Made by a program: the position numbers and the translations under genes. From NCBI RefSeq assembly GCF_016834655.1, contig NZ_JAENHP010000033.1, positions 1 through 64,000 on the forward strand: 64,000 nt of DNA. The letters are read 5' to 3'. The stretch comes from Paractinoplanes ovalisporus. GTDB taxonomy: Bacteria > Actinomycetota > Actinomycetes > Mycobacteriales > Micromonosporaceae. Shown here one piece after another: positions 4,119 through 30,347 of this stretch. A model generated the notes under the pieces. The model was not told the origin of the DNA. It worked only from the letters and a program-made list of their open reading frames with translations, and searched no databases. Every line of letters begins with the position of its first letter. Position 1 is the first letter of the stretch.

Positions 4119-4143
4119 CGCCGGGTGATCCTACGGAAAGGGT

Positions 4144-6929: not shown

Positions 6930-6969
6930 GTGCCCATGGTGGCCACGTCTCGCCGAGAGAGGAAACTTC

Positions 6970-7560: not shown

Positions 7561-7642
7561 GTGACTCGACCGTCACGCTCCGGGGCACTACGTTGTCACT
7601 CGACAATGCATGGTCTCGGCCTGAGGGAGGCGGGTGGGAGCA

Positions 7643-8305: not shown

Positions 8306-8402
8306 GGCTCGATAACCCCCGATCTAGGTGGTCCGGTGCTATATCAGCCAGGTACGCCGTATCCAAGCGCGACACACCTCGTTGGTTCCGGCAGATCCAC
8401 CC

Positions 8403-8417
8403 TTTGCAAGTTGCAAC
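8403..8417. promoter_or_regulatory. tandem TTGCAA motif upstream of regulator gene
   Basis: TTTGCAAGTTGCAAC contains two self-palindromic TTGCAA hexamers separated by one base, inside the 240 bp gap (8306-8545) between divergent genes and about 130 bp before the XRE-TPR start. A possible operator; nothing else recognisable lies in this gap. Confidence 0.3.
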
Positions 8418-8545
8418 AAAAACTACGAGCATCGGTGAGCAGGCGATCACACACGTTGTGCGACGTACGCGGACGTGCGCGTTCCAGACTGCAGATGACA
8501 CAAGAGCTCGCCGGCGGGGGTCGCCGGTGAGCTGGGGGAGGCACC

Positions 8546-9781: not shown

Positions 9782-9794
9782 GGTGGGTTAGCAC

Positions 9795-10379: not shown

Positions 10380-10412
10380 GCCGGTCCCGCCGATTCCGCG
10401 GCCGAAGCCCGA

Positions 10413-10418
10413 TAGAGT
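10413..10418 (+). promoter_or_regulatory. -10 box of leaderless promoter
   Basis: TAGAGT (TANNNT) 8 nt before the GTG of the Nif3-like gene; with no ribosome-binding site between them, transcription likely starts at the GTG itself. Confidence 0.55.
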
Positions 10419-10426
10419 TGGCGGCC

Positions 10427-12018: not shown

Positions 12019-13109
12019 GGGTTGTTGTCGAGGCCGACGGCGGGTCGCGCGGCAACCCCGGGCCGGCCGGTTACGGCTCGGTGGTGCGCGACACCGACGG
12101 TCAGGTGCTGCTGGAACGCCAGGGCGCGCTCGGTGTCACCACCAACAACGTCGCCGAATACACCGGCCTGATCGAGGGGCTGAAGGCGGCCCACGAGCTC
12201 GGCGCCACCGAGGTCGACGTGCGGATGGACTCCAAGCTCGTGGTCGAGCAGATGTCCGGGCGCTGGCAGATCAAGAACGCCGGGCTGCGGCCGCTCGCCG
12301 CCGAGGCCGCCCAGTGGGTGGCGCGGATCGGCCGGGTGACCTTCGAGTGGATCCCGCGCGAGCGCAACAAGGCGGCCGACGCGCTGGCCAACCGGGCGAT
12401 GGACGAGGCCGCGGGCAAGCCGGTCCGCGACGTCGTCGAGCGCGAGGTCATCACGCCCGCTCCGAAGTCGTGGGCGCCGCCGTCGCTCGAGAACGCGACC
12501 CGCCTGATCCTCGTGCGGCACGGCGAGACCGCGTACACGCAGCAGGGTCGTTACTCCGGCCGCGGTGACGTGTCGCTCTCCGAGCAGGGCGAGGCCCAGG
12601 CGATGGCGGCCGGCGGGCGGGTGGCCGGCATCGCGCGCGACGTCACGGCCGTCGTGAGCTCGCCGCTGGGCCGCTGCGTGCGCACCGCCGAACACATCTC
12701 GGCCGAGGTGGGCGGCGTGCCGGTGACGGTGGTCGACGACCTGATCGAGGTCGATTTCGGGTTGTGGGAGGGCCTGACCTTCGCCGAGGTGCAGGAGCGG
12801 TGGCCGGGCGAGATGGAGGCGTGGCTCGCCTCGACGAGCGTGGCGCCTCCGGGGGGTGAATCCTTCCAGGCGGCGGCGAAGCGGGTGCGGGGGGCGATGG
12901 CGACGATCCTTTCCTCGTACGCGGGAGGGGTCGTGGTTGTGGTCTCGCACGTGTCGCCGATCAAGCTGATCCTGCGCGATGCGCTCGCCGCTTCCGACGC
13001 TTTCCTGCACCGGCTGTTCCTCGACGCGGCCGGCGTTTCCACGATGGACGTGTGGCCGGATGGGAACATAGCGGTGCGTTCCGTCAACGAGACGGCGCAT
13101 CTGCGCTGA
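12015..13109 (+). CDS. bifunctional RNase H / histidine phosphatase (acid phosphatase) fusion
   Basis: A 364-residue fusion. Residues 1-130 are a type I RNase HI domain with acidic residues in VEADGGSRGNPG, NVAEYTGLIEGL and VRMDSKLVVEQ and a C-terminal RNKAADALANRAMDEA. Residues about 160-360 are a histidine phosphatase with RHGETAYTQQGRYSGRGD (catalytic RHG) and VVVVSHVSPIK. The architecture equals mycobacterial Rv2228c, which cleaves RNA:DNA hybrids and has alpha-ribazole phosphatase activity for cobalamin synthesis. Last gene in the translationally coupled trio. Confidence 0.92.
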   Translation: MRVVVEADGGSRGNPGPAGYGSVVRDTDGQVLLERQGALGVTTNNVAEYTGLIEGLKAAHELGATEVDVRMDSKLVVEQMSGRWQIKNAGLRPLAAEAAQWVARIGRVTFEWIPRERNKAADALANRAMDEAAGKPVRDVVEREVITPAPKSWAPPSLENATRLILVRHGETAYTQQGRYSGRGDVSLSEQGEAQAMAAGGRVAGIARDVTAVVSSPLGRCVRTAEHISAEVGGVPVTVVDDLIEVDFGLWEGLTFAEVQERWPGEMEAWLASTSVAPPGGESFQAAAKRVRGAMATILSSYAGGVVVVVSHVSPIKLILRDALAASDAFLHRLFLDAAGVSTMDVWPDGNIAVRSVNETAHLR

Positions 13110-13152
13110 CCACTATTGCCCTCCGGGTTCGAGACGTTTAGCTTCCTCGATT

Positions 13153-13167
13153 AGGAAACTTTCTTCA
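13153..13167. promoter_or_regulatory. near-palindromic TTAGGAAACTTTCTT motif upstream of chitinase
   Basis: An imperfect palindrome 23 bp before the chitinase start. Motifs of this kind recur in front of secreted hydrolase genes of actinomycetes, so it may be an operator or part of the promoter for substrate-controlled expression. Based on recollection and symmetry only. Confidence 0.35.
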
Positions 13168-13189
13168 ACGTTTCGGCCCTGGAGGGCTT

Positions 13190-14473
13190 ATGCGCGTTTT
13201 CACCCGACGTCTCGTCGCCGCGGCGGCCGTCGCCGCGGTGGCGTCGACGTTCGCAGCGACACCCGCACAGGCAACCGGCATCAAGCCGTACGTCAAGGTC
13301 GGCTACTTCACCCAGTGGGGCATCTACGGCCGCGACTTCCAGCTCGCGAAGGTGCAGAAGTCGGGCGCCGCGTCCCGCCTCACCCACATCAACTACGCGT
13401 TCGGCCCGGTCACCGCGGACGGGCTCTGCGCCTCGGCCGACGCGTGGGCGGACTGGCAGACCCCGTTCTCGGCCGAGAACAGCGTCGACGGTGTCGCCGA
13501 CGTCGAGGGCCAGCCGATCTCCGGCAACCTCAACCAGATCAAGGAACTGAAGGCCAAGAACCCGAAGCTGCGGGTGCTGATCTCGCTCGGCGGGTGGACC
13601 GGCTCGAAGTACTTCTCGGACGCCGCGCTGACCGACGCGTCGCGCAAGAAGTTCGTGTCGTCCTGCGTCGACCTCTGGATCAAGGGCAACCTGCCCGGGC
13701 TGACCCCCGGTGTGGCCGCCGGCATCCTCGACGGCATCGACCTGGACTGGGAGTGGCCCGGTTCCTCGGGTGAGGTCGGCAACGTCATCCGGCCCGAGGA
13801 CAAGCAGAACTTCACGCTGCTGACCGAGGAGTTCCGTAAGCAGCTCGACTCCCTGTCGCGTACGACCAAGAAGCGCTACGACCTGACGGCCTTCCTGCCC
13901 GCCTCGCCGGTCAAGGTCGACGCCGGCTTCGAAGGCAAGATCTTCAAGTACCTCGACTTCGGCACCGTCCAGGGCTACGACTTCCACGGCTCGTGGGAGG
14001 CCCGCACCAACCAGCAGTCGGCGCTGTTCGTGCCGAAGGGCGCTCCCGACAACCCCGACTTCTCGTCCGAGGCCGCCATCAACAAGTGGCTCTCGGTCGG
14101 CGCGCCGCGCAAGAAGCTGGTGCTGGGCCTGCCCTACTACAGCCAGGGCTGGACGGGCATCACGGCCGGCGGCAACGGCCTGTTCGCGCCGGCCACCGGC
14201 CCGGCGCCGGGTGTCTTCGCCAACGGCACCGAGGACTACAAGACGGTCAAGAGCCTGCCCGGTTTCAAGGTCTACCGTGACCTGAAGGCCGGCCACTCGT
14301 GGCTGTTCGACGGCAAGACCTTCTGGACCTACGACGACCCGGCCATGATGCTCCAGAAGACCCTCTACATCCGGGCCAAGGGCCTGGGCGGCGCGATGAT
14401 GTGGTCGCTGGACGGCGACGACGCCAACGCGTCGCTGACCAAGGCCGTTTCGACCGGCCTCTGGACCCCCTGA
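13190..14473 (+). CDS. secreted GH18 chitinase
   Basis: A 427-residue secreted hydrolase. A signal peptide (MRVFTRRLVAAAAVAAVAST, cleavage near ATPAQA-TG) is followed by a GH18 barrel: GYFTQWGIYGRDFQ, LISLGGWTGS and the catalytic DGIDLDWEWP with Asp181, Asp184, Asp186 and the acid Glu188 (DxxDxDxE). There is no chitin-binding domain, so it probably acts on soluble or exposed chitin. LGLPYYSQGW and GGAMMWSLDGDD are typical C-terminal GH18 motifs. Transcribed alone and followed by a strong stem-loop. Confidence 0.93.
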   Translation: MRVFTRRLVAAAAVAAVASTFAATPAQATGIKPYVKVGYFTQWGIYGRDFQLAKVQKSGAASRLTHINYAFGPVTADGLCASADAWADWQTPFSAENSVDGVADVEGQPISGNLNQIKELKAKNPKLRVLISLGGWTGSKYFSDAALTDASRKKFVSSCVDLWIKGNLPGLTPGVAAGILDGIDLDWEWPGSSGEVGNVIRPEDKQNFTLLTEEFRKQLDSLSRTTKKRYDLTAFLPASPVKVDAGFEGKIFKYLDFGTVQGYDFHGSWEARTNQQSALFVPKGAPDNPDFSSEAAINKWLSVGAPRKKLVLGLPYYSQGWTGITAGGNGLFAPATGPAPGVFANGTEDYKTVKSLPGFKVYRDLKAGHSWLFDGKTFWTYDDPAMMLQKTLYIRAKGLGGAMMWSLDGDDANASLTKAVSTGLWTP

Positions 14474-14480
14474 GCCCTGC

Positions 14481-14514
14481 CTTCCCGTCTGCGCCGTTCG
14501 GCGCAGGCGGGAAG
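14481..14514 (+). terminator. stem-loop terminator after chitinase
   Basis: A 15 bp arm (CTTCCCGTCTGCGCC) pairs with its complement around a 4-5 nt loop with one G-U-type mismatch. It begins 8 bp after the chitinase stop and lacks a U-tract, the usual form in high-GC actinobacteria. Confidence 0.75.
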
Positions 14515-14560
14515 CCGCTCGGCGCACGATGATCGCTTGTAACGGGCGTGTGTCGTTAGC

Positions 14561-14586
14561 GTAACTGTGACCGTCTCCACAGTTAC
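14561..14586. promoter_or_regulatory. perfect 9 bp inverted repeat before the DUF3311 ribosome site
   Basis: GTAACTGTG and CACAGTTAC flank an 8 nt loop immediately upstream of GAGGAGG. It could be a repressor operator or, if transcribed, a hairpin that masks the ribosome-binding site of the transporter operon. Confidence 0.5.
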
Positions 14587-14601
14587 GAGGAGGTACGGCT
14601 G

Positions 14602-14829
14602 ATGGCGGAGCCCGAGACGCCGAAAGCAGTGCCCGTAGCCCGCAGCGACCGCAGCCCCTGGAACTGGCTGCTTCTGATCCCCATCGTGCTGCCGGTGCTG
14701 ACACCACTGTTCAATCACGACTCGCCCCGGTTGTGGGGTTTCCCGGCCTTCTACTGGCTGCAGTTCCTCTTCATCCTCGTCGGTGTGGCGACGACCTCGC
14801 TCGTCTACCAGATGACGAAGAAGCGGTGA
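14602..14829 (+). CDS. DUF3311 small membrane protein, symporter partner
   Basis: A 75-residue protein with two membrane spans (WLLLIPIVLPVLTPLF and FYWLQFLFILVGVATTSLVY) and a cytoplasmic TKKR end. DUF3311 proteins are nearly always encoded just before a sodium:solute symporter, as here (4 bp apart), and are thought to be a small accessory subunit, comparable to the YwcA/ActP pair. GAGGAGG lies 8 bp before the ATG. Confidence 0.88.
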   Translation: MAEPETPKAVPVARSDRSPWNWLLLIPIVLPVLTPLFNHDSPRLWGFPAFYWLQFLFILVGVATTSLVYQMTKKR

Positions 14830-19208: not shown

Positions 19209-20354
19209 GTGATCAGTACCGAGGTGTTCGGGCTGCGGCGGGCCCGGGTGGCGACGTCGGCGGTTTTCGCGGCCCATGGGGCCGTGACGGGGACGTTCGC
19301 GGCCAGGGTGCCGTGGATTGCCGACCATGTGGGGGTCGGGCCCGGCGGGCTCGGGATCGCCCTGCTCATGCCGGGTGTCGGCGCGCTGCTGGCGATGCCG
19401 TTGTCGGGGCGGCTCGTGCACCGGCTCGATCTGCGGACGCTGGTGCGGGTGCTGATGCTGGCCTGGGTCGCCGCGCTCATGCTGCCGTCGCTGCCCGCCC
19501 AGCTGTGGCTGCTCTGCCTGGCGCTCGTCGTCTACGGCGCGGCCGCGGGGCTCGCCGACGTGGCCATGAACGCGCACGCCGTGCTGGTCGAGGAACGGTA
19601 CGGGCGGTCCGTCATGTCCGGCTTCCACGGCTGGTGGAGCGTCGGCGGGCTGGGCGGCTCGGCCGTCGCCGTCTTCGCCGCGCGGGCCGGACTGGGTGCG
19701 CCGGCGCACTTCGCGATCGCCGTCGGAGTGCTGGCCGTCGTCGTGCTGGTCGCCTCGCTCGGGATCATGCCGCACCGGCCCGCGCCCAACCTCGAGGAAC
19801 CGCCCGCGTTCGCCCTGCCCAGCAAGGCCGTGCTGCCGATCGGCCTGATCGGGCTGTGCGCGGTCTTCGCCGAGGGCGCGAGCCTCGACTGGGCCGCCGT
19901 CTATGTCCGTGACCTGCTGCACCACCCCGCCGCGACCGCCGCCGCCACCGTGTCGATCTTCTCGGTATGCATGGCCGTCGCGCGGTTCGGCGGGGACTGG
20001 GTCGTACGCAAACTCGGGCCGGTCACCACGGTCCGCATCAGCGGCGCCTTCGCGACGGCCGGCGCGCTCATGGTGGTGCTGCTCGATCAGGTCGCGCTCG
20101 TCATCACCGGGTTCGGGCTGCTCGGCATCGGTATCGCGGTGGTGGTGCCGCTCGTGTTCGCGGCCGCCGGGCGCAGCAGCGAACACCCGGGACGCAGCAT
20201 CGCCGGGGTGGCCGGAATCGCGTACGGAAGCGGTCTGATCGCCCCCGGAATCATCGGCGGAATCGCCCACCTGTCGTCGCTGACGGTATCGTTCGCCGTC
20301 ATTGTCGGGCTGATGGTCATCATGACGCTCAGCGCTTCGGTGCTACGCCGCTAA
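19209..20354 (+). CDS. MFS transporter
   Basis: A 381-residue major facilitator with about 12 membrane spans. RVPWIADHVGVGPGGLGIAL, SGRLVHRLDLRTLVRV (motif A-like) and the central VMSGFHGWWSVGGLGGSAVA segment are typical of the YbjJ/fucose-permease-like branch. GTG start (ATG two bases earlier is immediately followed by a stop). Probably a small-molecule exporter or sugar permease; not in an evident operon, though its 3' end overlaps the convergent kinase gene by 4 bp. Confidence 0.85.
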   Translation: MISTEVFGLRRARVATSAVFAAHGAVTGTFAARVPWIADHVGVGPGGLGIALLMPGVGALLAMPLSGRLVHRLDLRTLVRVLMLAWVAALMLPSLPAQLWLLCLALVVYGAAAGLADVAMNAHAVLVEERYGRSVMSGFHGWWSVGGLGGSAVAVFAARAGLGAPAHFAIAVGVLAVVVLVASLGIMPHRPAPNLEEPPAFALPSKAVLPIGLIGLCAVFAEGASLDWAAVYVRDLLHHPAATAAATVSIFSVCMAVARFGGDWVVRKLGPVTTVRISGAFATAGALMVVLLDQVALVITGFGLLGIGIAVVVPLVFAAAGRSSEHPGRSIAGVAGIAYGSGLIAPGIIGGIAHLSSLTVSFAVIVGLMVIMTLSASVLRR

Positions 20355-21241
20355 TCGAGCAGTGGCTCCAGCATGCGGGCCACGTCGAGCGCACGGGAAC
20401 GGGCCTGCCCCGAAGCCTCGACCGTCCACAATTCGGAGAGCACACCCATGACGAAGCCCCAAGCGACGACCCTTTCCCTTTCCTCGTACGCGGTGAGCAT
20501 GTCGATGCGTTCCGGCACCCGCGCGAGCAGTTCCGGGTCGCGTCGTTCCGGTTCCGGGTTGTAGAGCATCGCCCCACCGTCGTATCCCGGGTCGCCCACC
20601 CATCCGTGCGGGTCGATCGCCACCCAGTCCCCGTCGTGACCGCGCAACACATTGCCGTGGTGCAGATCCCCGTGCAGAACCGTTTCGCGCGGCGCGCTGT
20701 CACACAGATCGTCGAAGAGTTCGGCCGCCCGGTCCACCATCCGCCGCGGAATGGGCCCCTCGACGTAACGCTCGAAACCCCCGCGGAGCTTGCGCAGGTG
20801 CGGCAGGTTGCGGTTCTCCGCCCGTACGCGGTGAAGGCGGTGACCCACGTCGACCAAAGCGGCCTCGTCGGCGACCGTCAACGGTGTTCCCGGGTCGGCG
20901 CGCTCGATGAGAAGGGCACCCTTCGCGGCGTTCTCGGCCAGAAGCCGTACGGCGCCGTCACCGTCGAAAACCCGCAGCGCTTCCGCTTCGCTGTCGAGGT
21001 GCCCATCCGGTACGCCGAGCTTCAGAACCGCTTTCGTGCCGTCGTCCCGAACCGCCGCCGCGACCCAGTGGAACGTCATCGGAAAGGGCTCCAGAACCCG
21101 TACGCCCCAATCGGCTGCCACCTCGCCGACCAGCGTGGGCAGGTCGGAAAGCCACCGCTGCCCGTCCGCCCCCCAGTTCTCGACGATGTTGCGCGTCAAT
21201 GTCCCGGTCGCGGCGAAAGGAGGGCGGAAGGCAGCTGTCAC
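20351..21241 (-). CDS. APH(6)/hydroxyurea-type antibiotic kinase family protein
   Basis: A 296-residue phosphotransferase. Signature: MTFHWVAAAVRDDGTKAVLK (N-lobe lysine), VLHGDLHHGNVLR (catalytic loop HGDxHxxN), AIDPHGWVGDPGYDGGAMLY (metal-binding DPxGWxGDxxYD). This is the aminoglycoside/hydroxyurea resistance kinase family (PF04655), which includes streptomycin 6-phosphotransferases APH(6). In soil actinobacteria such genes usually protect against self-made or environmental antibiotics, but many are uncharacterised. GTG start at 21241. Substrate not established. Confidence 0.83.
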   Translation of the reverse strand: MTAAFRPPFAATGTLTRNIVENWGADGQRWLSDLPTLVGEVAADWGVRVLEPFPMTFHWVAAAVRDDGTKAVLKLGVPDGHLDSEAEALRVFDGDGAVRLLAENAAKGALLIERADPGTPLTVADEAALVDVGHRLHRVRAENRNLPHLRKLRGGFERYVEGPIPRRMVDRAAELFDDLCDSAPRETVLHGDLHHGNVLRGHDGDWVAIDPHGWVGDPGYDGGAMLYNPEPERRDPELLARVPERIDMLTAYEERERVVAWGFVMGVLSELWTVEASGQARSRALDVARMLEPLLD

Positions 21242-21273: not shown

Positions 21274-22860
21274 TCACGGCTCCGCAAACGCCTCGGCGCT
21301 GTTCGGCGTGTTCCAGTCCGAGACCGGGGCGAATCCCAGCATCCGGCCGTTCACGTCCAGCCAGCCCACGCCGATCACATGCAGCTTCCCCGGCGCGACG
21401 GAGAATTGCGCCTTCATGGCGGTCTCGACCATGGGTAGTTCGAAGGCGAGGCCGTTCTCGTCCGGCCTTGACGAGCTGAATGTCCCGCCCGGCTCCACGA
21501 ATGTGCCGTTCCAGGCGACAGCGGTGTCGCCGAGATTGCAGCAGTCGCTGGACCCGAGGCTGTACAGCGATTTCTCGCCGGCCGCCTCGGGAATCCGATA
21601 CACCGCGGCCAGCTTGGACTGCGGCTCCGGTTCCTTGTCCAGAACCAGCACTACATTGTCGTACGCGTTGCGGACGTCGAGCCGGGCGCCGGTCCGGTTG
21701 GTCAGCGAGGGGCGGAGATAGATCCGGACCCATGGGTTGTCGGCGTCGACGTTGACGGACGAGTAGTAGTGCTCGACCTTCACCGTCACCGGCCCGGCGG
21801 CCCACGCCCGCAGCGACTGCTCGCGGCTGTGCGTGGCGGGCGGCCGGCTGGTCGGCGGGGCCTGGGTCGCCTGCGAATCGCGCGACCCCCGGACGATCAG
21901 CGGAACGGCCATGGCGATGCCGAGAGCCACCAGCGCGAGCAGCATCCCGGTGGCCCGCCGGGCGGAGATCGGGGCGGCCGGATCGCGTACGACCGGAGCC
22001 GGTGCGGCCCGCCTCGCGTTCCGGATCGCCTCGTACCACTGGTCGGCGGTCGGCCTCGGACGCCGGGGACCCACCCCGGCCGCGAGGAGCCGTTCCAACT
22101 GGGGCAGCCGCGGCGCGTCGTCCGGCAGCAGCACCTTGCCGCGGGCCTGGTCGACGGAGACGGTGGCGCCGTAGAACACGCGGTAGTAGAAGACGGCCAG
22201 CGCGTACCGGTCACTGTCGACGTCCGGCAGGTCACCCGGCGCCAGCAGCGGGTCACGCCAGTTGTCGTTGCGTGCGGTCACCGCGTGCGGGTTGGGGCGG
22301 CCGGCCGGGCGGGCGTTGTCGCAGTCGATGAGATAGATCCGCGGCGGTCCCCACACCGTCCACAGCACGTTCTTCTCGCTGATGTCGCCATAGACCATGT
22401 CGTGGTCGTCGAGAAACGCGAGCAGGGCGGCCAGGTCGCGCACCAGCCGCAGCCGCCGCGGGCGGTTGGGCAGGGTCAGGCCGAGCCGCTCGGCCGCCGT
22501 GGCGTGGACCAGGTGCTGCAGTTCGACGGTGTGCCGCTTGCCCAGCATGTCGGCCCAGAACTCGTCCGGCGCGGGCGACATGAGAAAACCGGTCGTACGC
22601 CGGAAGGTGTGGACCCGCCGCAGGGGCCAGGCGCAACGGGCGTCGAGCCAGTCGCGGGCGTCGTCCGGCAGCGCCCGCCGCCAGGCGATCAGCTCGTCCA
22701 GGTTGGACGAGTCGTCGATCGGTTCGAGGTATTCCTTGTAGTAGGTCGATCCGTCGACGACCCGGACGGTGCCCTTGCCGCCGGGGCTGCCGACCTGCGG
22801 GCCGGGCGGGGGGAGGTGCCTGCGGTCGAGTGGTTCGTCCGGTCCGGTCCAGTCGGTCAC
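21274..22860 (-). CDS. membrane-anchored protein kinase of TerY-P-type triad
   Basis: A 528-residue protein. Residues about 28-285 form a eukaryotic-like kinase domain: Lys42 in YYKEYL, catalytic loop VYGDISEKNVL (Asp159, Asn164), and IDCDNA replacing DFG (Asp179). Residues 305-323 are one transmembrane helix (GMLLALVALGIAMAVPLIV) followed by a Ser/Pro linker and an extracytoplasmic beta-rich domain with an adjacent Cys pair (SSDCCNLGD), a likely sensor. Start GTG overlaps the phosphatase stop by 4 bp, so it is translated after the phosphatase. In the described ter-linked triads the kinase works with the VWA and PP2C proteins; here it faces a type VII-like operon. Confidence 0.82.
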   Translation of the reverse strand: MTDWTGPDEPLDRRHLPPPGPQVGSPGGKGTVRVVDGSTYYKEYLEPIDDSSNLDELIAWRRALPDDARDWLDARCAWPLRRVHTFRRTTGFLMSPAPDEFWADMLGKRHTVELQHLVHATAAERLGLTLPNRPRRLRLVRDLAALLAFLDDHDMVYGDISEKNVLWTVWGPPRIYLIDCDNARPAGRPNPHAVTARNDNWRDPLLAPGDLPDVDSDRYALAVFYYRVFYGATVSVDQARGKVLLPDDAPRLPQLERLLAAGVGPRRPRPTADQWYEAIRNARRAAPAPVVRDPAAPISARRATGMLLALVALGIAMAVPLIVRGSRDSQATQAPPTSRPPATHSREQSLRAWAAGPVTVKVEHYYSSVNVDADNPWVRIYLRPSLTNRTGARLDVRNAYDNVVLVLDKEPEPQSKLAAVYRIPEAAGEKSLYSLGSSDCCNLGDTAVAWNGTFVEPGGTFSSSRPDENGLAFELPMVETAMKAQFSVAPGKLHVIGVGWLDVNGRMLGFAPVSDWNTPNSAEAFAEP

Positions 22861-23807
22861 CAGTCGACCGCCGTGGGCTTGAACCACACGCCCACCGCCG
22901 TACGGTCGTCGCTTTCGCCACGGCGCTGGAAAGAGACGTCGTGCAGGAAGCCGGCGACCGTGGGCACGCCGGCCCAGCATCGGGTCAGGTGGGCCGACAC
23001 CTCGGCTGACGCCATCGCCCCGGACAGGCCGTCGGTCACCACCACCAGGGCCGACCCCGGCCGTAGCCTGCCGCTGAACTTCCGGACGGCGTTCTCGGAG
23101 CCGGGCAGCGAATCGGTGCGATCGTAGGGACCGTCGGGGTCGCTGCCATTCGGTTCGAAACCGCCCTCCGTGAGGCGGTAGATCCGGCCGTCGCCGACCT
23201 GGAGACCGGTGAAGGAGCCGTCGGAACAGACCCACGCCATAGCCAACGTGGTGGCGAGCGACTGTTCGTCCCAGCCGCCGCGCACGAAGCTGCCGGCTCT
23301 CGCCGACATTGCCGCACTGACCCCGCGGCACAGGTCGGCCGCGTCCATGCCCCGGTTGTTGTCCACCGCCTCCATGCCCAGCCGGCAGGCCTCGACCGCG
23401 GCGATCCGGGCGCCGACCGCCGAGTACCGAGCGCTGGAACTGCCGACCCCGTCGGCGACCGTGACCACCACACAGTCCTGGGCCCGGCCCAGGGCGTAGC
23501 TGTCCTCCCGGGTGCCGCCGTGGCTGGCGTGCTTGCGCCCGCAGACCGAGGCGGCGCGTACGGTGAGCGGGCCGTGGGTGCCGCCGTCGGCGCTGATCTG
23601 CGACTGGGTCGTCCACGACGTCACGCTCAGGGATGCGTCCTCGCGGGCCGGGGTGATGGGCTCTCCCAGGACGACCGGCAGCGGGCGCCCGAACTCGCTC
23701 ACCGGGCCGGGGGCCGCTCGTTGACCGCCCTCGTGGGCCTGCGTGCCGGTCACGCCCGGGCCGTCCGGGTCGCCCAGGCCCAGCCGGTGGAGCGAACGCC
23801 GGATCAT
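22857..23807 (-). CDS. PP2C family protein serine/threonine phosphatase
   Basis: A 316-residue phosphatase. Metal-binding motifs appear in order: TREDSYALGRAQ (Asp), VVTVADGVGSSSA (DG), GLQVGDGRIYRL, ALVVVTDGLSGAM and ESDDRTAVGVWF (DD). The first about 70 residues, Gly/Pro-rich, are probably disordered. ATG at 23807 follows GCGGAGG; a GTG at 23828 is a less likely alternative. Middle gene of the VWA-phosphatase-kinase cluster, 28 bp after the VWA gene and overlapping the kinase gene. It should dephosphorylate what the kinase phosphorylates. Confidence 0.85.
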   Translation of the reverse strand: MIRRSLHRLGLGDPDGPGVTGTQAHEGGQRAAPGPVSEFGRPLPVVLGEPITPAREDASLSVTSWTTQSQISADGGTHGPLTVRAASVCGRKHASHGGTREDSYALGRAQDCVVVTVADGVGSSSARYSAVGARIAAVEACRLGMEAVDNNRGMDAADLCRGVSAAMSARAGSFVRGGWDEQSLATTLAMAWVCSDGSFTGLQVGDGRIYRLTEGGFEPNGSDPDGPYDRTDSLPGSENAVRKFSGRLRPGSALVVVTDGLSGAMASAEVSAHLTRCWAGVPTVAGFLHDVSFQRRGESDDRTAVGVWFKPTAVDW

Positions 23808-23835
23808 CCCCGCCTCCGCGAATGACACGACGAGT

Positions 23836-24858
23836 TCATCGCGGGATCCGCACCTCTCGCCAGCCCGTCGGCTCCGACCGGGTGAAGTCCTGCCATCCCT
23901 CCGGCGCCGAGGACGGTCTTTCGAAGATGTCATCGCTGTCGGGCCGGCCGGCCGCCACCGACGTGGTCAGCGAGTTGAGCACGAAATCCATGAAGGTGTC
24001 GAACTTGGCTGCCGGCGTGCCCTCCGATGGCAGGAAGGCACCATCAAGGCCGACCTCCTGGATGGTGGCGGCCGTAACCTCGCCGAACCCGAAGGCCAGC
24101 ATGTGCGGCGCGCCGTGGAAGGCGACCCGGTCGGTGAGTCGCTGCAGCGGTCGTCGCCAGTCGTTGCGCCGGTTGTGCTGACCGTCGCTGAGGAAGAAGA
24201 CCACCGGTCGGTACGGGCGCCGTCCCTCCAGATAGAGCTGGTAGAGGTCGGCTGCGATGGTGTGGCGGAGCAGTTCGAAGGCGGGAGCGTAGTCGGTGCC
24301 GTCGCCCTCGGCGCGAAGGCTCGGAAGGGTGATCCGGGTGATGTCGGTCAGAGGGGTGTGCACGGCCGCCGTCTCGTCGAAGACGACCACGGACAGGTGG
24401 CACACCTCGGACCAGCTGGGTTCCCGCAGCATCTTTTCGCGCAGCTGGAGCATTTCCTGATTGACCTGGGCGATCGACGTCCCGGACATCGACGCCGAGA
24501 TGTCCACGGCCAGATAGCAGGGCAGCACCCGATAGGCCGACTGGGGGAGCGGCGTGGCCGGCTTCGCCCGGGAACGGAGATACGCCACCAGTTGGGACCG
24601 GCCGAGTAACCCCGAAGCGGAGGACTCCCGCGTCTCCACGAGAAGGCGCGCGCCGGAAGGGACCCGTCCGTGGCCGAAGGAACGACCCTGATCGAGAATG
24701 GAGCCGTCCTCCTTCCGGATGGTCACATCGTGGTCCGGCGGCAGTTCCAACACCCTGCTGATCTTTTTCCGGAGTCTCCAGACAGCGATGTTGTCGGCCA
24801 GAGAAACGCGGGCGAATCTGCCTTCCGGGCCGAGGACGAGCACGTGAATCTGAGCCAT
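23836..24858 (-). CDS. TerY-like VWA protein with N-terminal ubiquitin-like (YukD-like) domain
   Basis: A 340-residue protein. Residues 1-78 read as a beta-grasp ubiquitin-like fold (MAQIHVLVLGPEGRFARVSL, DNIAVWRLRKKISRVLELPP, ILDQGRSFGHGRVPSGARLL), the type seen in YukD and at the N-terminus of EccD in type VII secretion. Residues about 110-300 are a TerY-class von Willebrand A domain with MIDAS DISASMS (Asp119, Ser121, Ser123), a threonine in EGDGTDYAP and FLSDGQHN. First gene of the leftward operon. The domain join of a secretion-type ubiquitin-like fold with TerY is inferred from pattern; it ties this triad to the divergent WXG100/EccC operon. Confidence 0.8.
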   Translation of the reverse strand: MAQIHVLVLGPEGRFARVSLADNIAVWRLRKKISRVLELPPDHDVTIRKEDGSILDQGRSFGHGRVPSGARLLVETRESSASGLLGRSQLVAYLRSRAKPATPLPQSAYRVLPCYLAVDISASMSGTSIAQVNQEMLQLREKMLREPSWSEVCHLSVVVFDETAAVHTPLTDITRITLPSLRAEGDGTDYAPAFELLRHTIAADLYQLYLEGRRPYRPVVFFLSDGQHNRRNDWRRPLQRLTDRVAFHGAPHMLAFGFGEVTAATIQEVGLDGAFLPSEGTPAAKFDTFMDFVLNSLTTSVAAGRPDSDDIFERPSSAPEGWQDFTRSEPTGWREVRIPR

Positions 24859-24880
24859 GGCGCCTTCTTGATCGGCCGTT

Positions 24881-24913
24881 GTGGACAGTCTTTCCGGGTA
24901 GCGGTGGACAGTC
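24881..24913. promoter_or_regulatory. paired GTGGACAGTC direct repeats in divergent promoter
   Basis: The exact decamer occurs at 24881-24890 and 24904-24913, centre spacing 23 bp (about two helical turns), in the 165 bp gap between the divergent VWA and WXG100 operons. It is a good candidate binding site for a shared activator or repressor. Confidence 0.5.
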
Positions 24914-25023
24914 GAACTATGGCCGGTCCGAGGGCGAAAGAGAAGTCTTCTGAATTTCGCATTGTTTTGCTAACGTCCCAGCTCAGGCGGCAGCTGTGGC
25001 GCGCCGTATCCGAAAGGATCCTC

Positions 25024-25311
25024 ATGTCTGAGTATTCTGTTTCGCCCGAGGCCATCCGGGGCGTCGCGGCCCAGGTCTCGGCCGGCGCTTCCGAGATCGA
25101 TTCCCAGCGTGCGGTGCTGCTCGGCCAGATCCAGGGCCTCGGTGACACCTGGCAGGGAGCCGCTTCGTCGGCACTTCAGTCGCTGTACGCACAATGGGAC
25201 GCCAACGTCCGTTCCCTGCACGACACGCTGGCTCAGATCGGCCAGACCATGCAGGCCGCCGCAGCCAGTTACGAGGGCACCGAATCGGCCGTTCAGCGTT
25301 CGCTCGGATGA
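25024..25311 (+). CDS. WXG100 family type VII secretion protein (EsxA/B-like)
   Basis: A 95-residue helical hairpin protein. The WxG turn is WQG at residues 43-45, flanked by two helices, and the C-terminus has a YxxxE signal (Tyr83-Glu87, YEGTE) used for type VII export. Length is that expected for the family. Its TGA overlaps the next ATG (ATGA), so it is translationally coupled to the second small protein, with which it likely dimerises. Confidence 0.92.
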   Translation: MSEYSVSPEAIRGVAAQVSAGASEIDSQRAVLLGQIQGLGDTWQGAASSALQSLYAQWDANVRSLHDTLAQIGQTMQAAAASYEGTESAVQRSLG

Positions 25312-25607
25312 GCGATTTCTCGGTCGATCCAGCCGCCCTGCAGAATGCATCCACGGCGTTTTCCCGAGCGGGTTCGGAAGTGGCTCATCAGGTGGCCGCG
25401 CTCTCCCTCGGCGCCCGTTCTCCGGAATCGCCGGAAGTCAGTGGGGGCGCCGAACACGCACAGTCCTATGGCGACACCCTGAATTCGGCCGTCGACGTTC
25501 TGAAACAGCTCGAGGCCGCTCTCGAGGGCCTGTCGACGCGGCTCTCCGTCGCCGGGCGCCTCTATGCCGAGACGGAGTCCGCGAGCACGGTACGACTGGA
25601 ATCGTAG
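25308..25607 (+). CDS. WXG100-like ESX partner protein
   Basis: A 99-residue helical protein (MSDFSVDPAALQNASTAFSR) of the actinobacterial type VII-target class (DUF2580-like). It lacks a WxG turn; a Ser/Pro/Gly loop (RSPESPEVSGGAEH, about residues 37-50) occupies the hairpin. The C-terminus again carries YxxxE (Tyr86-Glu90, YAETE). Coupled by a 4 bp overlap to the upstream WXG100 gene, it is the natural heterodimer partner. Confidence 0.85.
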   Translation: MSDFSVDPAALQNASTAFSRAGSEVAHQVAALSLGARSPESPEVSGGAEHAQSYGDTLNSAVDVLKQLEAALEGLSTRLSVAGRLYAETESASTVRLES

Positions 25608-25614
25608 GAACCGC

Positions 25615-26586
25615 ATGACGGATGTGATCGGCGACGAACCGCAGACCTTCGGCGTGCCCGGCTTCCCGGCGTTCGACGCGAACGAGTTGCGGGCGGCCGC
25701 GGGCGCCTGGTCGGCCGTCGCCGCCGGCCTGCGCCAGACCGCCGACGCCGTGCAGCTCCAGGTCAACGTCCTGAGCGACGCCTGGACCGGTGTCGCGCAG
25801 CAGGCGTTCGCCACGGAATGGTCGACCGTGGCGGGCGGGATCCAGGAGCTCGCCACCGAGATGGACGGCGTCGCCGCCGGTCTGCGCCGGAACGCGGACG
25901 AACTCGAGCAGCTCAAGGCCGACTACGACCGGTTGATGATCGAGCTCGGCATCTCGGTCGCCGTCGGTGTCGGGCTGATGTTCTTCACCTTCGGCGGCAG
26001 CGCGCTGCTGTCCGCCGCGAACGCGGGGCGCCTGGTCACGCGCGCGTTCACCATCGTCAAGCTCGCGCAGGCCGTCAGCCGGTTCGCCTTCGTCGCGGCC
26101 GGTGGTTCCCTGCGGGCGATCGCCTCCCGGTTCGCGGTCAGCGCGGCCTTCACAGTGGGCACTCCGGTGGCCGGCAACCTCATCGAGGACCCGCACGCCA
26201 ACCCGCTCCGCGGTATCGACCCGGTGGACGCCACCCTGGTCTCGGTGATCGGTGTCTTCCTGCCGTTCCACAAGGTGGGGAGCACCTCCGTGTTCCGCGG
26301 CGCCGCCAACAGCGTCACCACCGACGGGCTGGTCCAGCTCTATCGCACGCACCGGCTCGACCCCGGCGGCCTCCTCTTCTCCGGCCTCTCGGGCGGCGCC
26401 ATGGCCAAGGTGCCGAAACCGATCGGCAAGGAGGACATCGGTTACTCGACGGGCGGAGCGGAACTGTCCGATCTCACCGAGCCGGCCGCCCGTCGCCGGT
26501 TCGCGTCGGAACCTGAACCGGGCGATGACGGGTCGGAACCGGCGGACGAGAGCGGTACGACCGGCGAGAGCATCAGCCGAGCCTGA
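25615..26586 (+). CDS. WXG-domain membrane protein of type VII-like locus
   Basis: A 323-residue protein. Residues about 20-112 are a long WXG100-like helical pair with turn WTG at 57-59 (LSDAWTGVAQQAFATEWSTV). Residues about 118-190 contain hydrophobic segments (ISVAVGVGLMFFTFGGSALL) that may insert in the membrane, resembling the N-terminal half of CpnT/LXG-type substrates. The C-terminus is short and acidic and shows no toxin domain, so it could be a translocon-associated or carrier protein rather than an effector. 7 bp after the previous gene; its stop overlaps the eccC start by 1 base. Confidence 0.75.
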   Translation: MTDVIGDEPQTFGVPGFPAFDANELRAAAGAWSAVAAGLRQTADAVQLQVNVLSDAWTGVAQQAFATEWSTVAGGIQELATEMDGVAAGLRRNADELEQLKADYDRLMIELGISVAVGVGLMFFTFGGSALLSAANAGRLVTRAFTIVKLAQAVSRFAFVAAGGSLRAIASRFAVSAAFTVGTPVAGNLIEDPHANPLRGIDPVDATLVSVIGVFLPFHKVGSTSVFRGAANSVTTDGLVQLYRTHRLDPGGLLFSGLSGGAMAKVPKPIGKEDIGYSTGGAELSDLTEPAARRRFASEPEPGDDGSEPADESGTTGESISRA

Positions 26587-29500
26587 TGACCGATCTGGAA
26601 CCCGTTCACCGGCGGGCTCGACGGCTCGGAGCGCTGCCCGAGGTGACCGCCTTCGAGGTGCCCGCCCCGCCCACGGTGGAGCAGCCTCGGCCGCCGCAGG
26701 CCGCCCTGGTGTTCCTGCCGGTGCTGACCACGGGGACCATCCTGATCTTCGGAATCCTCTCCGGCCGTCCTCAGATGATCGTGCTCGGCGTGCTGGTCAC
26801 CCTCGGGGCCATGGCCACCCCGCTGATCATGTATCGCGGCAGCAGCCGGTCCGCCGCCCGCCGCAACATGGCCCGCGCCGAGCGCTACACCGCCATGCTC
26901 GACGCCGTCGACTGCGAGGTGCGGGCCGCGCAGGGCCAGATCCGGGCGGCCCTGGAGTTCAGCCATCCCACGGCCGGCCGGATGACGGACTGGATCGGGG
27001 ACGGGCGGCTCTGGGAACGGCGGCTCACCGACGACGACTTCCTCGATGTGGCGGTCGGCGTGGCGGACGTTCCGTCCGGGGTCACGGTGGCCGTCGGCAA
27101 GGTGACCGCGCTCGACGCCGACATCATGGGCGACCTGCAGGAGCGCGCGGCCAAGACCGGAAAAGCCGCCCGCACCGTACGGGATGCGCCTTTCGCCGTG
27201 TCGTTGACGAACCATCCGGTGCTCGGCATCGAAGGGCCGCGCGACGCCGCGGCCGGCCTCGCCCGGTCGATTCTGCTGGAAGCCCTCGTCTGCTGCGGAC
27301 CCGACGAGCTCTCCCTGCTGGTCGCCGCGCCGCCGGAGCTCGAGCACGAGTGGGACTGGACCATCACGTTGCCGCACATGGCACACCAGGCCGATCCCGG
27401 GGGAGGGCGGCCGAGGATCGCCACCGACGCCAAGACCCTCGCGGCGTCGCTGGCCCGCCTCGTCGAGCCGCGCGCGCAGTTGCTCGACGAGATCGACTGG
27501 TCGACCGTCCGGGCCGGTCTCGCCCACGTGGTCGTCGTGCTCGACGGTTACCGTCCGCTCTCCGACCTGCACGGGGTTCCCCAGCTGCGGGACGTCCTGG
27601 CCGGCGCCGGAAAGCTCGGGCTCACCGTGCTGACCGTCGCCGCGGCGGCGCGGGACAGCCCGGCCGAGGCGTCGGCGGTGCTGGTGGTCGACGGCCGGGG
27701 GCAGGGGGTGCTGCAGCCCGTACGCAGTACGGCGTCACGCACGCGGTTCGCGGCGGTCGGGGCCGACTGCGGGACGGCGCAGCGGGTGTCCGAAATCATC
27801 AGCCGGCGGAGGCTGGTGAGTGACCTGTCGTTCGCCGGTGATCCGGCCGGCGACATGCTGCTCGACCTGCTCGGCCAGCGGCCGGTCCGCCCTCGGTGGG
27901 GTCGCCGGGACCCGGCGGCCTTCCTCACGGCCACGGTCGGTGTCGAGGCCGACGGCCGACCGTTCACCCTCGACCTCAAGGAGAGCGCGGCCGGCGGTGA
28001 CGGGCCGCACGGGCTGCTGGTCGGTGCCACCGGCTCGGGCAAGAGCGAACTGCTGCGCTCACTGATCACCTCGCTGGCGCTGACCCATCGCCCGGACGAA
28101 CTGCAGATCGCCTTCGTGGACTTCAAGGGTGGCGCCGCGTTCGAGTTGCTGGCCGAGCTGCCGCACGCGGCCGGGCTGATCACCAACATCCTCGACGACC
28201 CCACCCTGATCGCGCGGATGCGCAGCTCACTGAGCGGCGAACTGCTGGCCCGGCAACGTCTGCTGGCCGGCCACGGGCGTGACCTGCAGAGCATCGGGGA
28301 CTACCGGGAGTTGCGCGACCGCGATCCGAGCCTGCCCGCGATGCCCTACCTTCTGCTGGTCATCGACGAGTTCGCCGAGCTGCTGGAGACGGATCCGGGC
28401 TTTCTCGACCTGTTGCTGTCGGTCGGGCGCCAAGGCCGCAGCCTCGGCGTACATCTGCTGCTGGCCGGCCAACGGCTCGAAGCCGGGCGCATCCGCGGCC
28501 TCGAGAGCTACCTGAGCTACCGGATCGCGTTGCGCACCTTCACCCCGGAGGAGAGCATCGCGACGATCGGGTCCAAGGTGGCGGCCGAGCTGCCGCCGCT
28601 GCCGGGACACGGCTTCCACCGCGCGGCCGGCACCCTGCGGCGGTTCAAAGGTTCGCGGGTGTCGTTCGCCGCCGACCTCGGCCTGGTGGTGGAGCGGCTG
28701 CGTGACGTGCCGCCGGTGCCGCCGCTCTGGCTGCCGCCGTTGCCCGACCCGGGCCGGGCCGAAATCCTTGCCCTCGACGATCCGCGGCTCGACCACCCGG
28801 CCGTTCCGGTGGGCGACGGCCTCCCTTTCGTGGTGGGGCTGCTCGACGACCCCTCCCGGCGCCGGCAGGACCCGGTCGTCGTCGACGTCGCCCAGCGCGG
28901 CGGCCACCTCGCCGTGGTGGGTGCGCCGCAGACCGGCAAGAGCTCGGCCATGGCGACCGAACTCGTGCAGGCGGCCCGCCGCTTCCCGGCGTTCCTGCTG
29001 CGGTTCTACGTCCTGGACTTCGGCGGCGGCCGGCTGGCGGCCGCCGCAGGCCTGCCGAACGTCGGCGCCTACGCCACCCCGCAGGAGCCACAGCGGGTCG
29101 GCCGGATCCTCGCCGAGATCTCGACGCTGCTCGACGACCGGGCGGTGCGGTTCCGCCGGGACCACGTGACCGGCATGCCCGCGCAACGCCGGCTGGCCGA
29201 ACAGACGGCCGACGAGGAGACGCAGGCCCACACCGTGCTGATGATCGACAACTATGCCGCGTTCAAGGAGCGGTACCCCGGCCACGAAGCGGTGATCGAG
29301 CGGCTGCTGATCGAGGGTGCCAGCTTCGGGCTGCACCTGCATCTGACCACCGCCCGGTGGACCGACGTCAGCACCCGCAAGCTGGAACAGATCGGCGTAC
29401 GGTTCGAACTGCGCCTGAACGAGGCCACCGACTCCATGCTCGGCCGGGCGCGCGGGGCCGCCCTGACCTCAGCCGGCCCCGGGCGGGCGCTGGGCTCCGA

Positions 29501-30347
29501 CGGCCGGCAGCTGCAGATCGCCGCGCCCTGCCTCGGCGCCGAGTCACCGTCGCCCGGCGACCTGGCCGACGTCGTCGCGGCGATCACCGACGCGTCCTCC
29601 ACGGAACCGGCACAGTCCCTGCGCCTGCTCGACGACCTGACAGCGGACGAATTCCGCGCTGCTGGGGAGACGGTCGCGGCCGGCGGCATCCTGGTCGGTG
29701 TCCACGAGTCCGGCTTCCGGCCGGTCCCGTTCCGGCCCGGTCGCGATGGGCACCTGCTCATCTACGGTGACGCCGAGTCCGGCCGTACGGCGACCCTGGC
29801 CCGGATGCTCGCCGGCGCCGACGCCTACGTGGTGGATTTCCGGGGCCGGCTGTCCGGCGCCTGCGGTACGGCCCGGTCGATCGGCGAGCTCACCGAGATG
29901 GTCGGCGTGCTGCACGGGCTTTTAGCGGCGCGCATGGCCGACGGACTCCGGACGGGCGACCGGCCGCTGCTGGTGGTGGTCGACGACTACGAACTCGTGC
30001 AGGCAATGAGCCCGCCCGGCCTGCCCGGCACACTGGCCGACCTCTCGGCTTATGCCTTGGCCGCGGAGCAGGTGGGAGCCGCGTTCGTGGTGAACCAGAC
30101 CGCCACCAACGCGCTGAGCCGGATCCACGACCCGCTGATCAGGCGGATGCTGGAGGCGTCGGCCTGGCGGCTGCACTTCTCGGTCGCCGCGCGCACCGAG
30201 CCGTTGCCCGGTAACCTCCGCGGTCGCCCGCTCGCGCCCGGCGTCGCCCAGCTGATCCGGCCCGGCCGCCCCGACGCGCTGATCGGGACCCTGGGCCCTC
30301 CGTCACCCGACGAGCCCACGGATCCGCCGGGCGAGGGCGGCCTGTGA
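26586..30347 (+). CDS. eccC: EccC-type FtsK/SpoIIIE ATPase of type VII secretion
   Basis: A 1253-residue ATPase. Two membrane spans at about 38-80 (AALVFLPVLTTGTILIFGIL, MIVLGVLVTLGAMATPLIMY) precede three FtsK/SpoIIIE modules. Module 1 has canonical Walker A GATGSGKSE (480 on) and Walker B LLLVIDEFAEL; module 2 has GAPQTGKSS (779 on) with TVLMIDNYAAF; module 3 has a degenerate GDAESGRTA (1061 on), Arg replacing the Walker lysine, with LLVVVDDYELV. This matches mycobacterial EccCa+EccCb joined in one chain. It powers export of the WXG100 proteins. Last gene of the rightward operon; its final 45 bp overlap a broken HIT gene on the other strand. Confidence 0.92.
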   Translation: MTDLEPVHRRARRLGALPEVTAFEVPAPPTVEQPRPPQAALVFLPVLTTGTILIFGILSGRPQMIVLGVLVTLGAMATPLIMYRGSSRSAARRNMARAERYTAMLDAVDCEVRAAQGQIRAALEFSHPTAGRMTDWIGDGRLWERRLTDDDFLDVAVGVADVPSGVTVAVGKVTALDADIMGDLQERAAKTGKAARTVRDAPFAVSLTNHPVLGIEGPRDAAAGLARSILLEALVCCGPDELSLLVAAPPELEHEWDWTITLPHMAHQADPGGGRPRIATDAKTLAASLARLVEPRAQLLDEIDWSTVRAGLAHVVVVLDGYRPLSDLHGVPQLRDVLAGAGKLGLTVLTVAAAARDSPAEASAVLVVDGRGQGVLQPVRSTASRTRFAAVGADCGTAQRVSEIISRRRLVSDLSFAGDPAGDMLLDLLGQRPVRPRWGRRDPAAFLTATVGVEADGRPFTLDLKESAAGGDGPHGLLVGATGSGKSELLRSLITSLALTHRPDELQIAFVDFKGGAAFELLAELPHAAGLITNILDDPTLIARMRSSLSGELLARQRLLAGHGRDLQSIGDYRELRDRDPSLPAMPYLLLVIDEFAELLETDPGFLDLLLSVGRQGRSLGVHLLLAGQRLEAGRIRGLESYLSYRIALRTFTPEESIATIGSKVAAELPPLPGHGFHRAAGTLRRFKGSRVSFAADLGLVVERLRDVPPVPPLWLPPLPDPGRAEILALDDPRLDHPAVPVGDGLPFVVGLLDDPSRRRQDPVVVDVAQRGGHLAVVGAPQTGKSSAMATELVQAARRFPAFLLRFYVLDFGGGRLAAAAGLPNVGAYATPQEPQRVGRILAEISTLLDDRAVRFRRDHVTGMPAQRRLAEQTADEETQAHTVLMIDNYAAFKERYPGHEAVIERLLIEGASFGLHLHLTTARWTDVSTRKLEQIGVRFELRLNEATDSMLGRARGAALTSAGPGRALGSDGRQLQIAAPCLGAESPSPGDLADVVAAITDASSTEPAQSLRLLDDLTADEFRAAGETVAAGGILVGVHESGFRPVPFRPGRDGHLLIYGDAESGRTATLARMLAGADAYVVDFRGRLSGACGTARSIGELTEMVGVLHGLLAARMADGLRTGDRPLLVVVDDYELVQAMSPPGLPGTLADLSAYALAAEQVGAAFVVNQTATNALSRIHDPLIRRMLEASAWRLHFSVAARTEPLPGNLRGRPLAPGVAQLIRPGRPDALIGTLGPPSPDEPTDPPGEGGL

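What the first reader, a model, noticed from the sequence alone, without database searches (positions are those of the whole stretch)
21274..30347. Type VII-like export module face to face with a TerY-type VWA/phosphatase/kinase triad
Seen: leftward VWA, PP2C and membrane kinase genes overlap or nearly touch; rightward two WXG100-type genes, a WXG-domain membrane protein and eccC are all coupled by overlaps; both operons share one 165 bp promoter. Known: TerY-P triads were described around tellurite/ter stress systems, and EccC with WXG100 defines type VII secretion. Inference: phosphorylation of the ATPase, substrates or a translocon part gates export. Missing EccB/D/E and mycosin suggests either a minimal system or use of another translocon.
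Basis: partly seen in the sequence, partly recalled or inferred. Interest (0 to 1): 0.82.

Follow-up and report, generated by a model that had tools for sequence, protein, structure and literature searches.

The report
Kinase-linked type VII secretion module
A bacterium that is probably a soil actinomycete carries a compact protein-export machine built together with a kinase, a phosphatase and a scaffold protein, and sister copies of the module carry toxin-like cargo, so it is probably a switchable weapon or stress-response exporter of a kind so far described in other bacteria.

Summary
Window 21274-30347 encodes a VWA/PP2C/membrane-kinase triad divergent (165 bp) from a WXG100 protein, a WXG-less partner, a WXG-domain protein and an EccC-type ATPase. 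The pairing is real: of 67 genus genomes three, this one included, carry this EccC type, and a fourth lies in another family. All four have a complete triad, in three gene orders. By the same profiles none of 32 other EccC loci has a triad member and none of 40 TerY-like VWA stretches has EccC or WXG. Two things change the reading. The WXG-domain protein is probably cargo, not translocon: counterparts carry extra C-terminal domains (in one, a WHH/colicin-type nuclease) followed by immunity-type genes; the window copy lacks both. And the VWA protein begins with a ubiquitin-like fold, the kind of domain that contacts the ATPase in other type VII systems. The whole resembles T7SSc (WXG100, Ub-like, ATPase, kinase, vWA, phosphatase), published only from Bacillota; TerY-P triads beside WXG100/FtsK genes are published from Proteobacteria. 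I call it a T7SSc-like variant, probably actinomycete, with Ub-like and vWA fused. Phospho-gated export is inferred.

The parts
21274..22860 (-). Membrane Ser/Thr-type kinase (TscD/TerY-P kinase-like), 528 aa; kinase domain, one predicted TM (about residues 305-323), about 200 aa beyond it
   Evidence: No Pfam hit; weak LanL/LanKC/MAD6 hits, E 1.9e-5 to 8.7e-4. GDxxxxN and DxD motifs aligned in 4 of 4 clade loci, the Lys of YYKEY in 3 of 4 (G307 has a VAK close by); TM by hydropathy. 53% identical in G449.
22857..23828 (-). PP2C/PPM phosphatase (start uncertain: GTG 23828 or ATG 23807)
   Evidence: PF13672 82.8 bits, cut-off 24, on 22860-23729; RED, ADG, GDG, TDG, DD motifs in the window copy; 55% in G449
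23836..24858 (-). VWA protein with N-terminal ubiquitin-like domain (residues about 1-85) and TerY-like VWA (about 108-305)
   Evidence: VWA_2 30.2 bits, cut-off 27; DxSxS...T...D MIDAS; Ub-like fold; 59% over residues 1-323 in G449
24604..24858 (-). Coding stretch of the ubiquitin-like domain (residues 1-85; residues 1-100 were folded)
   Evidence: Model pLDDT 74.8; Foldseek best E 1.1e-4, prob 1.00
24859..25023 (.). 165-bp divergent intergenic region
   Evidence: Read directly; alignable with the G449 gap, e.g. shared GCTARCGTCC
25024..25311 (+). WXG1: WXG100 protein, WQG motif, C-terminal YxxxE (YEGTE)
   Evidence: PF06013 70.6 bits; TIGR03930 66.7 bits, cut-off 44.85; motifs; 79% in G449
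25308..25607 (+). WXG2: WXG100/EspC-like small partner without WxG, YxxxE (YAETE)
   Evidence: Below cut-offs; 58% in G449; motif
25615..26586 (+). WXG-domain protein (WXG100_2), 323 aa, hydrophobic segments; corresponds to the N-terminal carrier part of longer WXG proteins in two sister loci, without their C-terminal parts
   Evidence: PF25547 45.8 bits; 43.5% over residues 1-272 to a 481-aa G449 protein, 26% to a 440-aa G009 protein with WHH/colicin DNase
26586..30347 (+). EccC-type FtsK/SpoIIIE ATPase (EccCa+EccCb), 1253 aa, no FHA domain among its hits
   Evidence: clade with G449, G307 and G009 at SH-aLRT 100

Best explanation
A compact, kinase-controlled type VII secretion module, T7SSc-like, in what is probably an actinomycete. 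Shown: conserved gene content, co-inheritance, kept active-site motifs, and a predicted ubiquitin-like start of the VWA protein. Inferred: EccC is the export motor; WXG1 with WXG2 (each with a C-terminal YxxxE) and the WXG-domain protein are exported. The kinase reads an envelope cue through its part beyond the membrane helix, and the phosphatase resets it. The VWA protein is the adaptor, its ubiquitin-like domain docking on EccC as EccD-type domains do, so the phospho-switch acts on the motor. In sister loci the WXG-domain protein carries a C-terminal toxin-like part with an immunity-type gene beside it; the window copy carries only the carrier part.
For: Full module in G449, per-gene identity 43-79%, flanks unrelated. 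EccC clade of 4 with SH-aLRT 100. Complete triad in 4 of 4 clade loci, triad-profile hits in 0 of 32 other EccC loci, EccC or WXG in 0 of 40 TerY-like VWA stretches. Triad co-directional with EccC in G307 (2 bp from kinase stop to EccC start) and in G009. WXG protein with nuclease domain plus SUKH-1 gene in G009; longer WXG protein plus pentapeptide-repeat gene in G449. Ub-like fold. Nearly the component list of published T7SSc (PMC11217815, parts read).
Against: No experiment. The triads fall in two groups (window+G449; G009+G307) with long branches, so the coupling may be old or may have arisen twice; in G009 and G307 the VWA protein has no Ub-like part. Sequence relation of the Ub-like part to EccD/YukD is only suggestive (hhalign prob 9-31%, P 0.0035 to 0.0005; 0.3% against a single standalone YukD), and Pfam gave no YukD hit. 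Only two longer WXG proteins were seen; the G449 tail matches no known family, and NCBIfam recognised neither the G009 tail nor its SUKH gene. No EspG-like gene at the locus. WXG1 and WXG2 of G009 lack the C-terminal YxxxD/E, and its WXG1 lacks WxG.
Confidence: 0.6

Rival explanations
1. The WXG/EccC operon feeds cargo to the genome's ordinary T7SSa core (EccB, EccD, mycosin encoded elsewhere), with the triad regulating that shared machine.
For: One EccB over cut-off at C11; EccC, EccD and mycosin over cut-off at C44; a WXG100 pair at C59.
Against: The window EccC lies far from the canonical EccC, and published T7SSc has no further T7SSa or T7SSb orthologues either (PMC11217815). EccE was not sought.
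Confidence: 0.2
2. The triad is a phage- or stress-sensing defence switch (as TerY-P triads elsewhere), and the export module is its effector arm that releases toxin or disrupts the envelope on infection.
For: TerY-P-like modules are reported as antiphage systems, and TerY-like VWA genes flank WXG100/EssC genes in CoCoNuTs (PMC11090510, passages and section 10); a kinase-dependent T7SS response to phage in Enterococcus is described in PMC11217815. In PADLOC the EccC hits mad8 at 122 bits and SspH at 72, as an FtsK-type ATPase may.
Against: No PADLOC hit for VWA or PP2C at E 0.01; the kinase has only PD-T4-6, E 0.0016. The kinase has a membrane helix, not the zinc ribbon or OB-fold of those triads.
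Confidence: 0.25
3. The window copy is disarmed: with no toxin domain or immunity gene it is a decaying or domesticated remnant that no longer acts on competitors.
For: The window WXG-domain protein stops at 323 aa and EccC follows with a one-base overlap, whereas G449 and G009 have 481 and 440 aa and an extra gene in between.
Against: All frames are open and active-site motifs kept across 9 kb, unlike decay; the 50-aa tail could have a role.
Confidence: 0.3
4. Chance neighbours: two unrelated operons that happen to be divergent.
For: Each part is met on its own: TerY-like VWA matches in 19 of 60 relatives (E 1e-3) and 26 of 394 class genomes (E 1e-15); an EccC-type match in 67 of 67 genus genomes.
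Against: 4 of 4 against 0 of 32 loci, three gene orders; 1.7e-5 by simple count, not corrected for shared descent.
Confidence: 0.03

Closest known systems
T7SSc (TscA-TscG), Garrett, Higginson and Palmer 2024, PMC11217815
   Same: FHA-less EccC/EssC-type ATPase, WXG100, Ub-like domain, membrane kinase, vWA, PPM phosphatase; toxin and immunity genes at some loci; no EccB or mycosin
   Different: Probably an actinomycete, not Bacillota; Ub-like domain fused to the vWA protein; a second small WXG-less partner; no gene left in the module for an EspG-like TscG; placement beside TscC sequences not tested
TerY-P triad (Anantharaman et al. 2012, not held; described in PMC11090510 and PMC4978471, passages read)
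   Same: TerY-like VWA, PP2C and kinase genes together; such triads near WXG100 and FtsK/EssC genes are published in CoCoNuT III-A operons and in H. pylori and relatives
   Different: Window kinase ends in a membrane helix and outer part rather than a zinc ribbon or OB-fold; no McrBC/CoCoNuT family among the ten window proteins scanned (the rest of the window was not scanned); the window ATPase has predicted N-terminal membrane segments, the CoCoNuT one lacks them
T7SSa (ESX/Ecc)
   Same: EccC with EccCa and EccCb parts; WXG100 protein with YxxxE
   Different: No EccB, EccD or mycosin among the module's genes; EccC in a separate deep clade
WXG/LXG polymorphic toxins of T7SS
   Same: Sister-locus WXG-domain protein with C-terminal nuclease domain and adjacent SUKH-1 gene
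   Different: Window copy lacks toxin domain and immunity gene

Membership tests
T7SSc | FtsK/EccC-type ATPase without FHA domain | tested here: met
   EccCa/EccCb over cut-off, no FHA family among hits
T7SSc | ATPase groups with TscC sequences in a tree | not testable with these tools
   No T7SSc locus could be fetched; the only Bacillota EssC held (L122, Blautia) has FHA-type neighbours by eye and no triad-profile hit
T7SSc | Single WXG100 (TscA) at the cluster | tested here: inconclusive
   One clear WXG100 plus one sub-threshold WXG-less partner
T7SSc | Discrete ubiquitin-like protein TscB | tested here: not met
   No spare gene in the tightly packed module; a Ub-like fold is present as the N-terminus of the VWA protein. 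A genome-wide YukD search was not done
T7SSc | Membrane kinase TscD with kept active site | tested here: met
   Motifs and one TM
T7SSc | vWA protein TscE and PPM phosphatase TscF | tested here: met
   motifs
T7SSc | EspG-like TscG at the locus | tested here: not met
   No unassigned gene in the module; of the window genes listed by my script only module genes and one 40% hit outside it match 59.7 kb of G449. TscG has no sequence signature, so a copy elsewhere is not excluded
T7SSc | Found in Bacillota | tested here: inconclusive
70% GC, T7SSa genes EccB, EccD and mycosin and 18 of 18 plasmid records at E 1e-60 from Streptomyces or Nonomuraea point to Actinomycetota
TerY-P triad | TerY-like VWA with MIDAS, PP2C and kinase as neighbours | tested here: met
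   same three families in 35 of 40 TerY-like VWA stretches
TerY-P triad | Kinase fused to zinc ribbon (or OB-fold) | tested here: not met
   Window kinase: TM and outer part instead
T7SSa | EccB, EccD, EccE, mycosin with EccC | tested here: not met
   None among the module's genes. The one EccB is on C11; an EccD and a mycosin were seen on C44 (not searched genome-wide); EccE not sought
WXG polymorphic toxin | Variable C-terminal toxin domain and adjacent immunity gene | tested here: not met
   Absent in the window; WHH/colicin-DNase with SUKH-1 in G009; unknown tail with pentapeptide-repeat gene in G449
YukD/EccD ubiquitin-like domain | YukD-family sequence | tested here: inconclusive
   No Pfam YukD hit; weak profile match to an EccD set; Ub-like fold

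The most novel reading that the evidence does not exclude
TerY-P triads and the T7SSc regulatory genes are one and the same switch. In this lineage the switch has fused its vWA adaptor to the ubiquitin-like part that normally docks on the export ATPase, giving a direct physical link from kinase to secretion motor in a polymorphic-toxin exporter.
Probability: 0.4. Interest if true: 0.8.

Novelty: new variant of a known kind. Interest (0 to 1): 0.6.

Why it matters
How bacteria decide when to fire type VII systems is open. Here a kinase, phosphatase and scaffold are co-inherited with one EccC clade, and a domain fusion says where the switch should touch the machine, so gating becomes a simple binding and deletion test. 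It also joins two literatures: the T7SSc paper holds the word TerY 0 times, while papers on TerY-P describe the WXG/FtsK link separately.

Tried and rejected
Searches with the VWA protein (60 genomes, 35 of them congeners; 394 of the class) gave only VWA-domain matches and first suggested that the pairing was unique. They missed G009, which was with no match, and G449 was not in that sample. Searching the 67 genus genomes from the EccC side overturned that. A genome-contig scan with EccC gave one distant Blautia EssC; no triad profile hit there, though one ORF looks VWA-like by eye, and two other EccC loci (L108, L169) have a CoxE-type VWA that the triad profiles do not see. Class searches with the single EccC at E 1e-180 and with the WXG-domain protein gave no further module; the latter gave six places in family f33, where tblastn found no EccC or triad member. 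Plasmids: the five EccC records opened have no triad hit; VWA records were not opened. The family of G307 (35 genomes with itself, E 1e-170) and the phylum (251 genomes, E 1e-185) added none. In some searches only the two best candidates per genome were scored, so members may be missed. Of the places 20 were fetched and 19 analysed. Viral contigs: four weak loci, not analysed. VIA-align lists many ubiquitin-like folds at Z 6.7-8.3 and no row named YukD or EccD. The outer part of the kinase gave a poor model (pLDDT 47) and was not searched. Trees of kinase, PP2C and VWA have long branches, so single or double origin of the coupling is left open.
Full report
What is there. The window is G000:C26:1-64000 of an unnamed 11.4-Mb, 62-contig genome; C26 is 96,866 bp long. 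GC is 70%. That it is an actinomycete is inferred: it has EccB, EccD and mycosin genes, and all 18 plasmid records with an EccC match at E 1e-60 are Streptomyces or Nonomuraea. The seven genes of the finding are real; coordinates are in the parts list. Families: PP2C_2 82.8 bits; VWA_2 30.2; WXG100 70.6 for WXG1; WXG100_2 45.8 for the 323-aa protein; FtsK/SpoIIIE 193.8 for the ATPase; EccCa 516.3 and EccCb 421.6 bits. The kinase has no Pfam hit, but GDxxxxN and DxD motifs align in all four clade loci and the Lys in three; it has one strong hydrophobic stretch followed by about 200 residues.

Is the pairing more than chance? Searching the 67 genomes of the genus with the window EccC gave one 72% full-length match (G449) and one 39% full-length match (G009); the next best reach 365 bits and most cover only the first half at 35-41%. 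G449 carries the whole module in the same divergent layout: WXG1 79%, WXG2 58%, WXG-domain 43.5% over 272 residues, EccC 71%, VWA 59%, PP2C 55%, kinase 53%. Of the window genes listed by my gene script (WXG1 and WXG2 are not in that list), only module genes matched 59.7 kb of G449, plus one 40% hit of a gene near window position 7000, so the module sits in different surroundings. G009 carries WXG1, WXG2, WXG-domain protein, a SUKH gene, EccC, then VWA, PP2C and kinase in one direction. A profile of these three EccCs over 394 genomes of the class found, in another family (G307), a contig with VWA, PP2C, kinase and then EccC, cut by the contig end. The 34 other genomes of that family and 251 of the phylum gave no further case at the cut-offs used; searches scored only two candidates per genome.

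Tree and co-occurrence. In a 36-row EccC tree (quick method; window row cut to its first 700 residues, G307 partial) the window, G449, G307 and G009 form one clade, SH-aLRT 100, long stem. Profiles of the triad families, EccC and WXG were run over the 36 EccC loci and over 40 stretches around TerY-like VWA genes, chosen from 58 non-own places. Complete triad: 4 of 4 clade loci. Any triad-profile hit: 0 of 32 other EccC loci, three of them on short contigs (L220, L222, L223); two of the 32 have a VWA of another type (CoxE, L108 and L169). EccC or WXG: 0 of the 40 VWA stretches, 35 of which have a complete triad (by tblastn also none). The profiles were trained on rows that include the four loci. 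A plain count gives 1.7e-5, not corrected for shared descent. The triads of the four loci split into window+G449 and G009+G307, with long branches, so either the coupling is old or it arose twice.

Cargo. The window's WXG-domain protein ends at 323 aa and EccC starts at its last base. In G449 its counterpart has 481 aa with an unassigned tail (no Pfam or NCBIfam family; best PDB match E 0.22), followed by a pentapeptide-repeat gene. In G009 it has 440 aa with WHH nuclease (66.6 bits) and colicin-DNase (56.2 bits) matches, followed by a SUKH-1 gene (75.2 bits); NCBIfam sees neither. That is the build of polymorphic toxins with immunity genes. So this protein is most likely an exported carrier, and the window copy has no toxin domain. 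Both window small proteins carry YxxxE near the C-terminus, the general type VII signal (recalled); those of G009 do not.

The ubiquitin-like start. Residues 1-100 of the VWA protein, folded alone, gave pLDDT 74.8 with a beta-grasp order of elements. The Foldseek matches listed are ubiquitin, SUMO, ISG15, UBX and similar chains or complexes that hold one (best E 1.1e-4, probability 1.00, TM about 0.5). VIA-align best Z is 8.3, which alone may mean only a common arrangement. Sequence relation to EccD/YukD domains is suggestive only. [quoted passage not shown] The module has no EccD or separate YukD gene, so the fusion could supply that contact.

Comparison. PMC11217815 (abstract, part 1 of the results, substrate section, discussion and found passages) defines T7SSc: WXG100, Ub-like, FHA-less ATPase, membrane kinase, vWA, PPM phosphatase and an EspG-like protein, with toxin and immunity genes at some loci. 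Its abstract states that the new subtypes other than T7SSd are found only in Bacillota. The window has six of the seven component types, the Ub-like one fused to vWA, and no EspG-like gene. PMC11090510 (passages, section 10) and PMC4978471 (passages) describe TerY-P triads or TerY-like VWA genes beside WXG100 and FtsK/EssC genes in CoCoNuT III-A operons and in H. pylori and relatives, citing Anantharaman 2012, which is not held. So the coupling is known. The likely actinomycete form, the Ub-like/vWA fusion and the clade association are what I did not find in print (searches; open-licence papers only, listings and the passages named).

How it works, marked. Shown: gene content, co-inheritance, motifs. 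Predicted: the fold. Inferred: kinase senses outside, phosphatase resets, VWA adaptor docks on EccC, export of WXG proteins follows. The genome also has EccB (C11), EccC, EccD and mycosin (C44) and a WXG100 pair (C59), so a shared translocon remains possible. I file it as T7SSc-like, not as a member: a separate Ub-like gene and an EspG-like gene are not in the module, and TscC sequences could not be put in the tree.

Noticed in passing
L108 (G000:C11) 9165-14679; L169 (G035) 6620-12014: Another VWA-EccC neighbourhood: an AAA (AAA_5 family) gene, a CoxE-type VWA gene and an EccC-like ATPase in a row, kept in a congener at 82, 79 and 52% identity.
   Followed up: partly
L209 (G227) 6427-13134: EccC followed by a standalone YukD protein (PF08817, 34.2 bits, cut-off 27), with WXG-like genes and a 508-aa protein on the other strand; no triad hit.
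   Followed up: partly
L170-L175: A small gene directly before a WXG100_2-like protein, resembling the WXG2/WXG-domain pair, in family f33 genomes without EccC or triad hits nearby: orphan carrier pairs.
   Followed up: partly
L086 (G218) 3723-10210: A VWA-PP2C-kinase triad beside an ATPase gene and a helicase-like gene that resemble defence genes (labels recalled, not tested).
   Followed up: no
24859-25023: The divergent gap shares short blocks with that of G449 (for example GCTARCGTCC), a likely common promoter region.
   Followed up: partly
20351-21199: APH(6)-like phosphotransferase gene downstream of the kinase: over the Pfam cut-off (APH_6_hur 107.3 of 27), under the NCBIfam one (108.7 of 325); no match in the G449 stretch.
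   Followed up: no
G000 C11:253007, C44:543-550 kb, C59:157.9-158.5 kb: Ordinary T7SSa genes (EccB; EccC, EccD, mycosin; WXG100 pair) are scattered over three contigs in this genome.
   Followed up: partly
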